From NCBI GenBank assembly GCA_025738555.1, contig JAOVFP010000010.1, forward strand, positions 1,178,001 to 1,242,000: a stretch of DNA of 64,000 bases. Reading direction: 5' to 3'. Source of the DNA: Cyathus striatus (taxonomy: Eukaryota > Basidiomycota > Agaricomycetes > Agaricales > Nidulariaceae). Position numbers and translations under genes: made by a program. Below are positions 40,005 to 48,078 of this stretch, piece after piece. Below the pieces are notes generated by a model, which saw only the letters and a list, made by a program, of their open reading frames with translations, made no database searches and had not been told where the DNA came from. The first letter of the stretch is position 1. Each line of letters begins with the position of its first letter.

Positions 40005-40880
40005 CAGTCGAAATCCTCCTAACCCATACCCGAGACAACCCATAACTCCTTATACCCCATGGCATTTCATGGCTCCCAAGTTGGGAGGCAGGGATTTCGG
40101 TAAAAAACCCATAATTTAGCCATACCCCATACCCATACCCCTTGGTCAAAAAAAACCCATAGGTTTAGTTACTATATATGGTAGTCAAAACTGTCTGTAC
40201 GCAATATACGCAAAGCTAACTACAATTTTGTGGATCATAGTAATCATTCTACAGCTTACACACTTCTTGTTCTTAATTTCATTCTCCACATTACTCTGAT
40301 AACTGATTGACTACACATATCCAGGAAAAAAGTAGGTGCCTAAGATTTTTATAATGAATATAAAAAGATAGTTATTACACATGGTTTTTGCATGGCTTGC
40401 AGATGAAAAGTCTTTACTGAATTGTTGTGGAAGAGGTAGCTTGAAGAAGCTAAGTCCAGGTCATTGAAGCTTATTATTTATTTGAATTAAGTTATGTATC
40501 AAGTTTCTACTACTTAAGTATTACCTTGAAGTAGTATAAAAATGCAACATTGTATGTTTAATTAATTTGTCACTGATTTGTCATGTTTTTCATCGGCCGG
40601 AATAAAATTCCCACGGGTGGTACGCTCCACCTATACCATGGCTCCTAAAAAGCCATAGCCCAAGCAACCTCCGGAGGGGTATGGGTTAAGAGGATTTCGA
40701 CTGTACTAAGTATTAAGTATAATAGTAAATTTAAAATAACAAAGAGAGAGGCACAATGAAGCGATTGCGAGTCGTGATCATTACAAGCATCAAACCCAAT
40801 TAGAGGTACCGACTTGCAATTCGGCACAGCTCAGATCTCAGAGATAGCCAACTGAGCTAACATGGTTCGGTACTACTATC
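39500..40880 (-). repeat. Degraded tandem array of tRNA-like units, block 1
   Basis: Four units, all with the A-box on the minus strand (TAGCTCAGTTG-like), at about 39551-39567, 39815-39830, 39964-39980 and 40848-40859. Removing the mariner-type insertion (40005-40703) brings the last two to about 185 bases apart, the same period as elsewhere. On the minus strand the third unit reads CTCCCTAGCTCAGTTGA, then a variable middle, then GTGTTTGGTGCTTACAAAC; the unit at 48203 has GTGTTTGGTGCTCACCCAC in the same place. These are tRNA-shaped but degenerate in the B-box, so they are unlikely to be functional tRNAs. Confidence 0.6.
40005..40703. mobile_element. Tc1/mariner-type MITE with TA target duplication
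   Basis: A 699-base element. The left end begins CAGTCGAAATCCTCCTAACC and the right end is its inverse (GGTTAAGAGGATTTCGACTG). About 27 terminal bases match with one difference, and TA lies on both sides (40003-40004 and 40704-40705). The termini and TA duplication fit the Tc1/mariner/pogo superfamily. The interior next to both ends is rich in CCCATACCC-type sequence. No transposase frame. Confidence 0.87.
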
Positions 40881-40885
40881 ATTCG

Positions 40886-41350
40886 TATGGAAAGTCTAAC
40901 GACCACGCTCAAACGCATCAATTAAAATTGAGCTCCGGTGTTCGGCATCACGGCTTCTCGGTTATATATTACGATTTCGGTTTCACTTTTTCAGTTTCGC
41001 TTAGTGTACTTAGGGTCACTTAAGCGAGATCTAAAGTCTGAGTGTGATTTATATTACTAGCCGAAGCGTGGTCGTCCGGTAAGGAACTTTGAGCGCTTGG
41101 TGTGTTAAAATGAAATAAGAGATATACCTAATGAGCTGCAATATAATTACTCGCGCACCAGATGAACCAAGGATGTGAGCAATACTATACAACGCTCGAT
41201 TAGAAGTCGGGCTGAGGTTGGGATCGAACTCGGGACCTGTTGACTGTAAGCGAGCTATATATATCATATGGTATTATTAGTACTGTTGTATTTATAGATT
41301 TCTGAATACAAGGTATATTCATGCGCAGACCGGATACACTCTTACAGGGT
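40886..41350 (+). repeat. Left terminal inverted repeat of the 7.2-kb element
   Basis: Matches the reverse complement of about 47430-48072 nearly base for base over its first 290 bases and its last 130 bases. It contains a tRNA T-arm-like sequence on the minus strand (GTCCCGAGTTCGATCCC) near 41220-41245. Confidence 0.9.
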
Positions 41351-41569
41351 ATTGTTTAGCTATAGAATGTAACGATGACTTGATAAAATGACACATTATG
41401 ATTGCCATTCTGGGACACTGTACAGTGCATACAATTTAAAGTTGCGATTGTGCCGCTACACATGCTTCCTGGGCCTCTCCAATATTACATGTTCTCAGAC
41501 CATGATGTATATTTAAGACCGTCTGATACCCCAAAATCACAACCATACTGTAGAATAAACAGGCAAGTA

Positions 41570-43483
41570 TTACCAGTCACGATCTTCATCACTTTCATCT
41601 TCATCTGAAGTAAAATATACTTCAAAATCTGGAACTTCATCTTCACCCTCAATAAGTGGATCATCGGCATTCATCATTGCATCAAGTTGGATAGAGTGCG
41701 AATTATCTTATTATTTAGAGTCAAAATAAAGTAATATTAAAGGTTTAAACAGTGACTCACCCAAGCCTTGTCCGTTGTTAACACCTCCCATGTAATAGGA
41801 GCCATCTTCCTCAGCATTTTCAATGCCCCCCTCTAACTCAACGAGATCTGGCTGCAATTCAACTACATCATGAATTTCACGTCTGGAGGTGTGAATAACC
41901 TCTGTCCAGACCTCCTGAATCGTGTGGGGAATATTATCGAGAGATTGAAGTGTTGTGAGAATAAATAGGTATACATCCCAGACATTACTCCTTGTGATAA
42001 CTGGAGAATTATGTCGAGCATGGATTTCACGTGCTATATCTGAAAAGGACTTTGGAACTAGATCGAACACAGGATCATTGGCCGGGCAAAAGAGGGTGCG
42101 TGCTTCTTGTATAGCTTCTGGTTTAACTGATATCTAGTACACACTTAGAAATATATAATGATACGAATTCTCAATCAACGTACCTTAAAGTCTAAGACAC
42201 CATACTCCGTGGCATTATAGTATATATCATTGGGAACTCCATGTGGAAGAATTTTGTTGCGGTCAGCACGCTTTGCAGTATTGTTAACGCGATCCTTGTA
42301 TCCATCTAACTCCCCCTGTAACCATGGGATGAACACCCATCTGAAAACCATTCTAAATGTAATATTTAGGTATGATATAATATTAATTAAAAGTAACTTA
42401 CGCTTCAACTGTATTATCAGGATGATACCAATCTTCTTCGACACCATGGTCAAGAATATCTTCGAATCCAGGGGTAAAACGTCGCCGGAGTTGTGACCAA
42501 GTAATTTCGGGTTTTATATTTTTTTTCTGCCGCATCCAGCGGTGTTGAAGCGTTCCTGTAAGAGATGGGTCATGCCAGTGACGAAGGAATGTATGCCCGT
42601 TTGCCAATCCGAAATTTTCCGAGCCTGGGTCACTCTGAGTAACAAGTGGCATAGCTAAATCACAATTAGGAAGATCAGTACATATGTCTTCAACATAACA
42701 TATGAATATTCATACCACCTAACTGTGAAACAGAATCAAGATAGTAGCTCAAGATTAGCTTAGGATTACTATTTGTATGCCACACTTTCAACCATTGAAT
42801 AACTCCTGAAAATGGCTCGACACCTGTATGTAGCCCCAGACCAAATTTATACTTCCATTTATCGTGCTGATCCACAGCAACTATGTCATTGACCCCAGCA
42901 GCCCACCATTTTTTTCGGCGTAATCGATTAGCACGGCGCTGTTTAACTAGATCTGCTTCATACAATCCAAAGTACGAAGTCAGTACTCTTCTATATGTAT
43001 TTTAATTAGTGAAAATCAATATATTCGTTTTTAATACTTGTTTCATACCTTGAAACTGCCATATTCTCTTCGTGAAACAATAGGCTTGCCATTTCTCGAG
43101 TACCCGCATTTGGGTACTGAAGGCGAAGGCGTGTCATAGCCGGACGAATGCTCTCAACATCATGGCCCTGTTTCCGAGTTCGGTACAAGCCCATACTCTC
43201 ACGTAACTTTTTGAAATTCGTTAGTCTATAATATTAATTAGAAATGAAATCATATTAGATGAGAAAGCTTACCCTAAGCCGTATTGTGTAAGATCCATAT
43301 GCTGTGTCTTGAGGTATCCTAGTATAGTCTTATCTGATAAACGCATTTTCCAATACCTGAGTATATGTGGTGCTACATGTTCAACAGGTGCTATGGTACT
43401 GTAAGTATGGTATATCCACATATCATGTAGCATTATTACTTACGATTCGGCAAATGCTGATTTTTGCGTCCAGTTCTTGCCAT
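41570..43483 (-). CDS. Integrase-core DDE transposase (basidiomycete family)
   Basis: Predicted 513-residue protein. Exons: 43483-43444, 43390-43273, 43225-43049, 42990-42716, 42654-42402, 42352-42184, 42133-41761 and 41706-41570; total 1542 bases in frame. The N-terminal third has helix-turn-helix character (SDKTILGYLKTQHMDLTQYG). The catalytic core reads DIVAVDQHDKWK, QSDPGSEN and NIKPEITW. The likely DDE triad is D152, D212 and E253, giving a 40-residue D-E spacing close to the retroviral-integrase pattern. Further family blocks are GTLQHRWMR, VFRWVFIPWLQGELD and KILPHGVPNDI. The acidic C-terminus ends in a DEDESDED run. It matches the 'integrase core domain' proteins common in mushroom genomes. 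As the only transposase-like gene inside the element, it is inferred to cut and join its TIRs. The frame is intact, so it may be active. Confidence 0.9.
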
Positions 43484-44444
43484 TGAAGTATTGATGAGAG
43501 ACAGCGATACAAATAATAGTAATGGTAATATAAGTGAGATGGGGATTATTGCTGGTGTGTAAAGGGTATATATAGACAATTTAAAATATTACACGTTATC
43601 AGTCTCAAAGCATGGTACAAGTGCAGTAGTACAGCATTTAACACGTTATGTAACCTCATGTGTGTTTCAGGAAGTATTATTATGAATTCAACCCGTAAAT
43701 TTGACATTCTTTCAATCCATCTCATTACAAACTTTTAATTTCTTAGTATCAAAATGCCTATATGTATGTTCAATCAACACATGACTTGTACATGTGTTAA
43801 TTCAACGCTGATATGTCAGTTTAAATTCAGTAACTTTAATGTTCTTGTATTGCTGGTTAGTGAACAAGAGCATTTATGAAACTGCAGTGCGGCTACTAAT
43901 TAAGCTAAAGATAGTCTAGACACTCGCTTCATGGTACAGTAATAATCCTCATGTACTTTCGATTGATGAATGATGTCTCCTTTAAAACATGCTTATGTTT
44001 CCGGTGAGTAAATAATTGCTATGTGAAACTGCAGCATGATTACTGCGCAGATAAGCGATGACTAACATACAAACATCATGGCAAAAATACACTAATTTTA
44101 CGAAATATACCTGATGTCAATGCACAAATTGGACAGCTTTGCTGTGCTTCAAGTTTTAAATTTCAGACAACATTACATCCAACAGTCATCACACATGATT
44201 CATACACGGCCATGAGTCTCCATTTGATCGCCTCATGCATTCTCGCAACTCCGTGAATATCTGAATCTTTGCATATGTGTTCAAGTTCAAGTGTCAGACC
44301 GTTTTTTCTATGCAAAGTTGTTTATACTGAATTAATATATAACCAGAGAGCTAGATAGTTGCAGACTTTCATCGCACATCCTCTCCTTCTTGAATCAGCT
44401 TCTTACAATCATCTTTGTTATCAACGCTTTACACAAGTTTCATC
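43484..44444. promoter_or_regulatory. Shared divergent promoter region inside the 7.2-kb element
   Basis: 961 bases between the start codons of the transposase (minus) and the alpha-kinase (plus), AT-rich and without a reading frame. Near the kinase a TATA-like AATATATAACC (about 44334-44344) precedes a pyrimidine-rich stretch and the ATG by about 100 bases, a usual fungal promoter layout. Shared control of both genes is inferred. Confidence 0.5.
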
Positions 44445-47221
44445 ATGAACCACGATCAAGTTGAAGCTATTGCTGTTTTCACAGAAGATGCTCATGCGAA
44501 CAAGGCAATTCCTTGTGGTCGACAGGGTTGTTCCACAATGCTCCAATCTGGGGATTCCAAACACTATCTGAAAAGCGATTCTAAAGGTAAATGGGTCTGC
44601 GATAATTGTTTCGATCATTATGCTAAGAAGTCCGGGACAACTCTAAGTAAGTCTTTAAGTTCTAATATGTCATTCTCAATTTTTCACTTCTGATATTTAT
44701 ATTAGGACCAGATATTGCTCAGAAGTATAACCGCTCCAAACAATCATCACAGCCTGACTCTATAATTAGTAAGTTATATTTTACATCTACAGAGGTAATA
44801 GTACTTATCAATAATTAGGTCCTGCTCTTGCTTGTCAACGAAGTGCTCCAAATGATGTAGCTTCTATTGACCTTGAGTCCATTAGAGCTTCTGTAAATCA
44901 AGCTCAACGGAAAGGTATTGTTGACTAATTTTATCTACATTAATAATCTAATGAATGAATTTCGATATAGATGCAGAATTTCTTGCACGGAGAGTTACAG
45001 CATTACCAAATTCGTTCAGTTCATCATCATCTATACAACCATGGTATAGTATGCCGCATGTACCTGCAAACAGTCAATTCCCACCAGTAGCAATTCCCTC
45101 AGCCTGGTTGTCAAGTGACAATAACTATGGATCATCTAGTCAACGTATGTCAGCAACTGGATATTCAGGAATGCATCCACTGTACAACAAAGAGCGTGAT
45201 AGGATGCGCCAATTGAGCTATCAAAGCCGTCAAAGTGAAACAATTGGTATCGTTATTCAGGTTGTACGTGAAGTTCCTACAAAAACAAAGCCAGAGCTGG
45301 TCTTCGTGCGTAATTTGACTAGTATTGTACTCAATCTAATTATATTTAAACAGAATCTTCAGGAAGGATGTCAAAATGTACCGGCAACAGCTACACCTGC
45401 AGAACTACAGGTACTCGTTGAAAAGACTATGTTATGGAGGCTCAAAGACAAAACACACGGATTCAATTTTCATCGTGAATCTCTCACTATTCGTGAACTT
45501 TCAACCTGGACAGATCTTTCACGTGAAAACCAGGATCAACCATATTTTTATGAGCGTTGTTTCACAATGGGAAAGGGAAAGGGAAAGGACACTAAAGGTA
45601 CCTTTAAAAAACCAGCAAAGCCATTTATACTTGTACTCGTAATCTCTGCTACACTCTGGGAGGATTGTATGGAGTATATTGACACTGTTGATGTGCAGGT
45701 AAACTATTGTCTGATATAATTCTTAAAGATTAACTAATAACTTATGCAGGACGAGCCCAGGGCAACAGCTAATTTTGTTATACCTGTTTCATTGGATAAT
45801 GAAGCTGAAAGAAGTCGATCTCAGTATACTGAAATTACAAGTCCAAAGACAGGTTCAGGTATAGTAACACCAAAGAAGAAGGATGATTCTGTGAAAAAAA
45901 GATCTCGAACAGTAAGATTCAATGGATGTGCTATTGAGTATCTGAACTAATTTCATTTGTTTAGAATACTCAGAGCTCTGCTGATCTATCACCGACATCA
46001 ATTCCGTCGAAGAAACGAATAGCACTATATGTATCCCCTGATCGAGCAAAGATCCGTGATGCTTTGAAGACAGGGGGTTGTTATCCAATATACCGCTAAG
46101 TTCAGGTATGTATCTGTATCTTACTTTATTCAATTTTATTTCTAAATAATATGGGAAGTTAATCTGGTTGTCGAACAAATTCAATTCTATGTGATTCCTA
46201 GTATTGAATTATCAGAACTACTCTCTGACACTGGCTCAACATCATTCACTCCAACCACGCCATTTCATGCCACAGTAACGATCAATCACCGTGAGCTTCT
46301 TGGAGTAGGAGCATGTAAGACAGCACACCATGGTTTATTAACCGTTACTCCATTGTTGGAAATTGGGTTGGGGACTAAAGTAAACCAGCCAGTTGCTGTG
46401 AAGCGTGTGTATTTTCCAGAACAGTCAAAGGGAAGGAAGAAAGCTAGCGGCAGCTCTGTACCTCATAAAATTGCATATGGACGCTTTGCTTATGATACAG
46501 AGCTTGATAAAACTCTTGTTGAAGCAAATGTTGTCTACTGGGCGACATCATTATTATCCCATTCCTATGCTTTCATTGCGCAAATTATTTCCACCAAGGG
46601 GAACCCACCATTCAATATTCCGAAAATTCGTTTCATTAATGCGGGTTTAGGTATTGCTCAGGAATCGGTAGCTGTTAAAGCTGGAGTAAAAGCTGGGACA
46701 GCACGTAAGGCTTACCTCCTTGAAGAGTTTATAGACAAGAGCGACGGAGAATTCATTAAATTTATAAATAATGGATCGGCAGTTCCTCTTCTCGATGAAG
46801 ACGAGCCTCTCTATCAAATTGCAGAGTTTCTTTCATTTACTCAGCACATACAGTATGAAAAAACTGGAGCCCTGGTGTACATATCTGATTTTCAAGGTAG
46901 TCTTTTCTTATTATGACTTAAAGTATATTCTAACATACATCCAACTTTCAGGAAATTCCAGTTTACTATGTGATCCACAGATTATGACTTCACCGTATGT
47001 ATTAATACTTATGTTGTACACTTTATCTGACTGTGATAATTTGTGGGTCTAGAACTCTCGAGGACGGAATTTCACTATTTGGAGACGGAAATATTGGTGA
47101 AGCTTTTGACGAGTTTCCATCTGAGCATGTTTGCAATAAGTACTGCAAATGGTTTTCACTTAGTGATCTTGTCAGGACACTCATACCTCCTCTTTCATTT
47201 GAAGATGAGGCAGCTACATGA
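44445..47221 (+). CDS. Alpha-kinase (eEF2K/MHCK-type) cargo gene
   Basis: Predicted 760-residue atypical serine/threonine kinase. Exons: 44445-44646, 44706-44768, 44819-44914, 44971-45305, 45354-45698, 45750-45911, 45965-46094, 46159-46896, 46952-46994 and 47053-47221; total 2283 bases. The N-terminus has a zinc-ribbon-like pattern (CGRQGC ... VCDNC). The middle is low complexity with a putative basic stretch. The alpha-kinase domain fills the C-terminal third: GACKTAHHG loop, catalytic K526 in VAVKR, YLLEEFID, YISDFQG, LLCDPQIMTSP, FGDGNIGEAF and the zinc-binding HVCNKYC. All key elements are present. The junction after 46094 works only with a rare GC donor; with standard GT splicing a TAA and a one-base frame offset appear, so a disabling frameshift is the alternative. 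Gene and transposase are divergent inside one TIR pair. Confidence 0.88.
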
Positions 47222-47429
47222 TTAATTGTAATTGGTAGATGTATGGCTGCATATTTGTTCGCTTATTTTTCAATTGCAGTAGTATCAATTATATGATTTT
47301 TTGAGATGATGTATTATTGGAGATGCCAGGGAGATGTGTGTAGCGGTGTGACGGCAACAACAAATGATATATATTTTACAGTGTCTCGTCATCTTTTCAT
47401 GTGATCATCACATTATATTGTTTTTAAAA

Positions 47430-48072
47430 ACCCTGTAAGAATGTATCCAGTCGGCGCATGAATATACCCTCGCATTCAGAAATCTATAAATACAGCAGTA
47501 CTAATAATACCGTATGATATATATAGCTCGCTTACAATCAACAGGTCCCGAGTTCGATCCCTACATCAGCCCGACTTCCAATCGATGCCCCCTTGACTGT
47601 TGCACAACCTTACTCTCAATAGCTCTCGTCTCTCAAATCTCTTAATCTATTGATAATACCTGGAGACTGTAATTCTACAATACCTTGGTGCCGTCAAGTG
47701 CTCTTATCGATGTAAATTATAGTAATATGATATAAGTTGAAGGACATTTGTGAGCAATGTGAGCACTGTACAGTATTACTTACATCCTCGGTTCATCTGG
47801 TGCATGAGTAATTATATTGGAGCTCGTTAGGTATATTTCTTATTTCATTTTAACACACCAAGCGCTCAAAGTTCCTTACCGGACGACCACGCTTCGGCTA
47901 GTAATATAAATCACACTCAGACTTTAGATCTCGCTTAAGTGACCCTAAGTACACTAAGCGAAACTGAAAAGGTGAAACCGAAATCGTAATATATAACCGA
48001 GAAGCCGTGATGCCGAACACCGGAGCTCAATTTTAATTGATGCGTTTGAGCGTGGTCGTTAGACTTTCCATA
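47430..48072 (-). repeat. Right terminal inverted repeat of the 7.2-kb element
   Basis: Inverse copy of 40886-41350, longer because about 180 bases (roughly 47585-47765) are present here but not on the left. The 3' tRNA-arm-like motif is also present (about 47540-47570). Confidence 0.88.
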
Positions 48073-48078
48073 CATTCG

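What the first reader, a model, noticed from the sequence alone, without database searches (positions are those of the whole stretch)
40880..48078. Mobile element carrying an alpha-kinase gene beside an integrase-like transposase
Directly visible: inverted ends of about 0.47-0.64 kb starting TATGGAAAGTC, a 6-bp direct duplication CATTCG on both sides, and two divergent genes inside, one a DDE integrase-core protein and one an atypical alpha-kinase. A protein kinase as transposon cargo is unusual. Alpha-kinases are strongly expanded in mushroom genomes, so transposition of this kind could explain how they spread (inference). The kinase might modify host translation or the transposase, or simply be a passenger.
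Basis: partly seen in the sequence, partly recalled or inferred. Interest (0 to 1): 0.9.

Follow-up and report, generated by a model that had tools for sequence, protein, structure and literature searches.

The report
Two-gene mushroom transposon with alpha-kinase
This is a recently active jumping gene of a mushroom that carries a protein kinase next to its cutting enzyme; elements of this build were described in rust fungi in 2025, and here the kinase looks like a long-kept working part rather than an accidental passenger.

Summary
In detail: a 7,187-bp element (40886-48072) with long inverted ends, a perfect 6-bp duplication (CATTCG) and two divergent, intron-bearing genes, a DDE integrase-type transposase (PF24764) and an alpha-kinase (PF02816). 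It fits the IS3EU type of DNA transposon. Kojima 2025 (PMC12730594) describes IS3EU elements with TAYGG..CCRTA ends, 6-bp duplications, and transposase and alpha-kinase in opposite orientation, so the pairing is known. Added here: in this 107-Mb genome 40 of 77 related kinase places lie within 15 kb of a related integrase, 40 of 40 divergent; 16 of 18 end pairs of a second subfamily hold both genes. Kinase and transposase distances agree (r 0.97, 0 of 9,999 permutations) and both are under purifying selection between subfamilies (dN/dS 0.09-0.18): a conserved component, not a passenger. A sister copy on the same contig is 99.9% identical with another duplication: recent movement. Copies decay mainly by CpG to TpG change, suggesting cytosine methylation. 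The kinase's target is unknown; I favour phosphorylation of the transposase or of a host factor limiting the element. A new member of a known kind.

The parts
40880..40885 (.). target-site duplication CATTCG, left
48073..48078 (.). target-site duplication CATTCG, right
40886..41392 (+). left terminal inverted repeat, begins TATGGAAAGTC
   Evidence: three collinear blocks, 96/93/79% complementary; 66 matches in the genome, lower bound
47388..48072 (-). right terminal inverted repeat
41570..43483 (-). transposase gene, 8 exons by hand model (43483-43444, 43390-43273, 43225-43049, 42990-42716, 42654-42402, 42352-42184, 42133-41761, 41706-41570), 513 aa, DDE integrase core: D152 or D155, D212, E253
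   Evidence: spliced reading; PF24764 E 7.5e-10; residue numbers; 501 proteins at E <= 0.001, 120 listed
43484..44444 (.). space between the two start codons (shared divergent promoter region, inferred); no ORF of 80 aa or more lies in it
44445..47222 (+). alpha-kinase gene, 10 exons by hand model; sister copy L039 reads 764 aa
44445..44646 (+). first kinase exon with a conserved cysteine pattern (C-x4-C and C-x2-C), zinc-ribbon-like by eye
   Evidence: four copies and P0153; DUF7685 only at E 0.024, below its cut-off
46159..47222 (+). kinase catalytic part with the conserved Lys, Asp, Asn and His-Cys-Cys site of alpha-kinases (residue roles recalled)
46066..46078 (+). interruption of the kinase frame in the window copy (length difference in a run of G); open in the sister copy

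Best explanation
A cut-and-paste DNA transposon of the IS3EU type. Shown by sequence: long inverted ends, 6-bp duplications, a DDE transposase, and a divergently transcribed alpha-kinase kept with it through the splitting of several subfamilies. Inferred: the transposase binds the inverted ends, excises the element and joins it to a target cut with a 6-bp stagger. Inferred and less certain: the kinase is a second element-encoded factor that helps the element to spread, most likely by phosphorylating its own transposase (for example the acidic, Ser/Thr-bearing C-terminal tail) or a host protein that silences or limits the element. Copies with the kinase alone or without genes are deletion derivatives moved in trans.
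Against: No experiment; target of the kinase unknown. Close copies show little selection: dN/dS for pairs with dS under 0.06 is 0.57-3.5 (transposase) and 0.08-1.1 (kinase), and in the L059 subfamily nonsynonymous changes are only slightly below a CpG-aware expectation (transposase 58 against 68.0, sd 4.2, 4 of 400 simulations as low; kinase 40 against 46.5, sd 3.7, 24 of 400), so copies decay after insertion. Copies without a kinase have spread, so the kinase is not needed in cis. 37 of 77 kinase places have no integrase within 15 kb. Filing under IS3EU rests on structure and the printed description; Repbase transposases were not at hand for a tree. Foldseek by itself gave no match below E 0.001 for the transposase model.
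Confidence: 0.85

Rival explanations
1. The kinase is a captured host gene carried as a passenger, useful to neither element nor host.
For: 11 of 35 PF02816 places are of a different kinase type, so the genome has other alpha-kinases; derivatives without kinase have spread; close copies decay nearly neutrally.
Against: Purifying selection between subfamilies as in the transposase, and matching distances; in 25 homologues the Lys is kept in 13 of 13 that cover it, the Asp in 23 of 25, the Asn, His and both Cys in 25 of 25; the same gene pair is reported in other fungi.
Confidence: 0.07
2. The kinase serves the host (or buffers harm to the host), so selection acts on the host and carries the element along.
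For: The kinase catalytic part has no in-frame stop in 16 of 18 paired elements, the transposase in 6 of 18. Alpha-kinases such as eEF2K regulate translation (recalled).
Against: The difference follows from codons: at CGA columns the stop TGA replaces 18 of 107 CGA in the transposase and 2 of 10 in the kinase. Within the L059 subfamily the kinase decays about as freely as the transposase.
Confidence: 0.15
3. The kinase is an anti-silencing factor against host defence, comparable to the TET/JBP dioxygenases that other fungal transposons carry. This is one form of the helper model above.
For: CpG>TpG makes up 58 of 93 (transposase) and 49 of 67 (kinase) counted changes although CpG positions are 58 of 1,473 and 26 of 834, so these copies are probably methylated; in TET-bearing IS3EU a TET/JBP gene sits between the same two genes.
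Against: No target known. The Tet_JBP search of this genome found nothing, but its control did not ring either, so absence is not shown.
Confidence: 0.3

Closest known systems
IS3EU DNA transposons of Pucciniales and Tuber indicum that carry TET/JBP (Kojima 2025, PMC12730594; outline, passages and section 4.1 read)
   Same: TAYGG..CCRTA ends, TIRs longer than 30 bp, 6-bp TSD (stated for the rust families); transposase and alpha-kinase genes in opposite orientation (stated for TET-bearing IS3EU)
   Different: Those families have a TET/JBP gene between the two; none is seen in the window element. Host here is probably an agaric-type mushroom (best protein matches Cyathus striatus)
IS3EU/GingerRoot as described in PMC10045372 (passages read)
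   Same: TA..TA termini, usually 6-bp TSD, DDE core, no HHCC motif upstream of the core
   Different: the passages shown do not mention a kinase
Kyakuja/Zisupton and other TET/JBP-bearing fungal transposons (PMC12730594)
   Same: DNA transposon with an accessory enzyme gene
   Different: other transposases and TSDs (8 bp for Zisupton), dioxygenase instead of kinase
Alpha-kinases: TRP-channel kinase, eEF2K, myosin heavy-chain kinase A
   Different: 17-20% identity in the structural alignments; the N-terminal half has no Pfam match above cut-off

Membership tests
IS3EU | ends TAYGG..CCRTA (PMC12730594) | tested here: met
   window element TATGG..CCATA; 17 of 19 elements with TATGG on both ends, the others (L047, L048a) with one changed base at one end
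IS3EU | 6-bp target-site duplication | tested here: met
   15 of 19 perfect; L040 and L048a have 5 bp, L045 and L053 none
IS3EU | TIRs longer than 30 bp | tested here: met
   about 0.5-0.7 kb
IS3EU | DDE transposase of the integrase type | tested here: met
IS3EU | no HHCC motif upstream of the core (PMC10045372) | tested here: met
   0 cysteines in residues 1-145 of the 513-aa reading
IS3EU | alpha-kinase gene opposite to the transposase (reported for TET-bearing IS3EU) | tested here: met
IS3EU | transposase groups with Repbase IS3EU in a tree | not testable with these tools
   Repbase sequences not held
Alpha-kinase family | PF02816 above cut-off with the conserved catalytic and zinc-site residues | tested here: met
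   56.8 bits against 21.3; columns; fold
TET/JBP-bearing fungal transposon | TET/JBP gene inside the element | tested here: inconclusive
   no third gene seen in the window element's ORFs of 80 aa or more; PF12851 search of the genome empty, control silent
LTR retrotransposon or retrovirus | direct long terminal repeats | tested here: not met
   ends are inverted; the direct-repeat families found are short (20-29 nt) and none pairs the two ends

The most novel reading that the evidence does not exclude
The alpha-kinase is an essential second transposition factor: a transposon that controls its own transposase, or its host's silencing machinery, by protein phosphorylation, and most of the alpha-kinase expansions counted as host genes in mushrooms and rusts are this transposon gene.
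Probability: 0.35. Interest if true: 0.75.

Novelty: new member of a known kind. Interest (0 to 1): 0.45.

Why it matters
It turns 'a kinase that happens to sit in a transposon' into a testable claim: the kinase has been kept beside the transposase through several subfamilies. [quoted passage not shown] another lists an alpha-kinase among 46 stem-rust proteins under diversifying selection in a paper on candidate effectors (PMC4150398, passages). Since rust IS3EU elements carry this gene (PMC12730594), many of those may be transposon genes (inference, not tested here). In this genome 24 of 35 PF02816 places are of the transposon's kinase type.

Tried and rejected
Rejected: retrotransposon or virus-like element (ends inverted). 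Rejected: chance inverted repeat (66 matches of the end). Rejected: that the kinase is better preserved than the transposase in old copies. In-frame stops are absent from the kinase part in 16 of 18 paired elements but from the transposase in only 6 of 18; the cause is codon content, for TGA stands at 18 of 107 CGA positions in the transposase and 2 of 10 in the kinase part, and in the L059 subfamily a CpG-aware expectation gives 8.3 stops (10 seen) and 2.5 (2 seen). Tried without result: paralogous empty site (the joined flanks match only this locus); TET/JBP in the genome (control silent); tRNA or Rfam matches; a name for the N-terminal half of the kinase protein (no Pfam match for P0153; 2 homologues, where only the 7,994 candidates sharing most words were scored). 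Foldseek gave no match below E 0.001 for the transposase model; VIA-align then ranked Foldseek's own candidates. Papers: nine searches. Five papers were opened, and only passages (for PMC12730594 also outline and one section) were read; the others were seen as listings. Among what I read, only PMC12730594 joins an alpha-kinase to a transposon. That no other paper does so is not shown.

Counting limits: the 77 kinase places were gathered by hand from 129 exon-level matches and the 51 integrase entries from the listed part of 172 matches, with one integrase entry added; two integrase entries serve two kinase places each, so 40 pairs have 38 partners. 37 of 77 kinase places have no partner within 15 kb; many are short fragments or deletion derivatives. 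8 of 51 integrase entries, at least two of them from one gene, have no kinase within 15 kb. The distance test used the 18 elements for which I held both genes. One search scored 40 of 220 candidates; 4 of its 40 matches had no partner. One search used 7 transposase and 8 kinase copies (one more kinase copy held, L032, was left out), dropped codons covered by fewer than 5 copies or differing at more than one base, and counted a change once per copy that bears it.
Full report
What is there. Between 40886 and 48072 lies a 7,187-bp element with inverted ends (313 nt at 96%, 118 nt at 93% and 81 nt at 79% complementarity, collinear), beginning and ending TATGGAAAGTC, between two copies of CATTCG. 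A minus-strand gene of eight exons reads 513 aa with an integrase core (PF24764, E 7.5e-10); a plus-strand gene of ten exons ends in an alpha-kinase (PF02816, E 4e-15). The start codons are about 0.96 kb apart, back to back. Exon models are by hand, from splice signals and relatives, not from transcripts.

The family in this genome. The genome (107.45 Mb, 24 contigs, unnamed; best protein matches are to Cyathus striatus) holds at least 66 matches of the window's left end (40 of 351 candidates scored). A sister copy about 280 kb away on the same contig (C10:1499654-1506841, L039) is 99.9% identical over 7,190 aligned columns, with one substitution and five gap columns (four indels), and has the duplication CGTTGT: recent movement. 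In the window copy the kinase frame is interrupted at a run of G, and in the sister the transposase frame is interrupted in exon 3; with indels dominating, sequencing error is possible. Of 19 elements with both ends that I read, 15 have a perfect 6-bp duplication. A second subfamily (L059, C18) has ends of 715-730 bp beginning TATGGAAAGCC, the duplication CACAAG and the same two genes. Its end finds 40 matches (40 of 220 candidates scored); these make 18 pairs, of which 16 hold both genes and 2 the kinase alone; 4 matches are unpaired. Other elements are internal-deletion forms: kinase-only or with kinase remnants (L040, L046, L048, and L041 beside one end), with remnants of both genes (L045, L047), or without a match to either gene, such as a group of about 2.4 kb (L049, L050, L052, L053, L057) whose longest stop-to-stop frames are 108-115 aa.

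Do the genes belong together? Protein searches of the genome gave 172 exon-level matches for the transposase and 129 for the kinase part. Gathered by hand to places, 40 of 77 kinase places have an integrase entry within 15 kb (38 partners); the chance expectation per kinase place is about 0.014; 40 of 40 are divergent; 37 of 77 have no partner. Over the 18 elements for which I held both genes, pairwise protein distances correlate at r 0.968 (0 of 9,999 permutations reach it); over 7 subfamily representatives r is 0.943 (26 of 5,040). By contrast, of 25 other integrase-core places above the PF24764 cut-off, 1 has a kinase place within 15 kb, a short fragment 8.2 kb off.

Selection. For the three between-subfamily pairs with dS under 1, dN/dS is 0.09, 0.10 and 0.16 for the transposase and 0.15, 0.18 and 0.10 for the kinase part (window/L060, L059/L061, C8/C12b); the two pairs with dS 1.3-1.6 give 0.11-0.16; the other distant pairs are saturated. 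The N-terminal half of the kinase protein gives 0.20 and 0.20. The lysine, aspartate and asparagine and the His-Cys-Cys site of alpha-kinases are kept. An older pair inside one subfamily (C10d/C10e) gives 0.23 and 0.11. Among close copies there is little selection: dN/dS 0.57-3.5 (transposase) and 0.08-1.1 (kinase), and in the L059 subfamily 58 nonsynonymous changes against 68.0 expected (sd 4.2; 4 of 400 simulations as low) for the transposase and 40 against 46.5 (sd 3.7; 24 of 400) for the kinase; CpG to TpG accounts for 58 of 93 and 49 of 67 changes. This is a usual pattern for a transposon: selected while it moves, decaying once inserted, here probably under cytosine methylation (inference). 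I checked whether the kinase is kept better than the transposase in each copy; it looks so in raw stop counts (16 of 18 against 6 of 18 free of stops), but the rate at CGA codons is the same (2 of 10 against 18 of 107).

What is known. Kojima 2025 (PMC12730594; outline, passages and section 4.1 read; [quoted passage not shown] The 2023 IS481EU paper (PMC10045372; passages) gives TA..TA termini, usually 6-bp TSDs and no HHCC motif. The window element meets every feature that I could test, so it is filed as IS3EU; a transposase tree against Repbase was not possible. So the gene pair is not new. What these data add is that it is a conserved unit in a mushroom, without TET/JBP in the window element, and that the kinase is under selection together with the transposase.

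Most likely working. The transposase cuts at the TATGG ends and inserts with a 6-bp stagger (inferred from family and duplications). The kinase is made from the opposite side of a shared promoter region and helps the element to spread. Selection and co-divergence indicate that it matters; they do not show how. I think phosphorylation of the transposase or of a host silencing or repair factor most likely, the first slightly favoured because both proteins are made from one element and the transposase ends in an acidic Ser/Thr-containing tail with a recurring F-S-D pattern (consensus). The rivals are host benefit and, as one form of the helper model, anti-silencing; a plain passenger is unlikely.

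Kinase counts. Of 35 PF02816 places in the genome, 24 are of this transposon's kinase type and 11 of another; the 35 are incomplete, for the window's own kinase is not among them. Passages in two papers treat alpha-kinases as expanded in rusts (PMC4469406) or as a protein under diversifying selection in a study of candidate effectors (PMC4150398). With Kojima's result, transposon origin is the first thing to test for these (inference).

Noticed in passing
L039 (C10:1499654-1506841) against window 40886-48072: The two nearly identical copies have complementary interruptions: window kinase frame broken, sister transposase frame broken. Could be real or sequencing error in repeats.
   Followed up: partly
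L015, L016, L017 (C14:1616870, C9:2519968, C10:260304): Kinase copies flanked by matching ends on both sides (about 3 kb for the C9 one) share a TGA at codon 84 of the catalytic part; the same codon is TGA in L013, L024, L032, L035 and L038, so it may be a recurrent CpG hot spot rather than descent.
   Followed up: partly
L010 and L011 (C19:2366527-2370084, C19:2132184-2135741): Alpha-kinases of another type lie in 3.55-kb stretches that are 99.8% identical and whose outer parts match many other places (43 matches in all): another mobile element may have picked up an alpha-kinase.
   Followed up: partly
L055/L056 (C7:1253894-1268834): A stretch of about 15 kb bounded by ends of this family sits inside another copy of the transposase gene; flanking duplication imperfect (4 of 6). 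Its interior was fetched only in part and not analysed.
   Followed up: partly
L048 (C11:2132581-2136971): One end-bounded element (4.4 kb) contains another (2.2 kb, duplication GTAATT): nested insertion.
   Followed up: no
window 41212-41262 and 47530-47580: Inside both inverted ends a stretch resembles a tRNA T-arm with B-box (GTTCGATCCC on one strand) by eye; no tRNA or Rfam match.
   Followed up: partly
L054 (C2:7369213-7371476): An element at another site, without a match to either gene, has the same duplication CATTCG as the window element; probably chance.
   Followed up: no
C17:2087765 and C17:2079561: The only one of 25 other PF24764 places with a kinase place within 15 kb; the kinase piece is a short fragment that recurs at C14:2018252, C2:608112 and C4:118941 with the same borders.
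   Followed up: no
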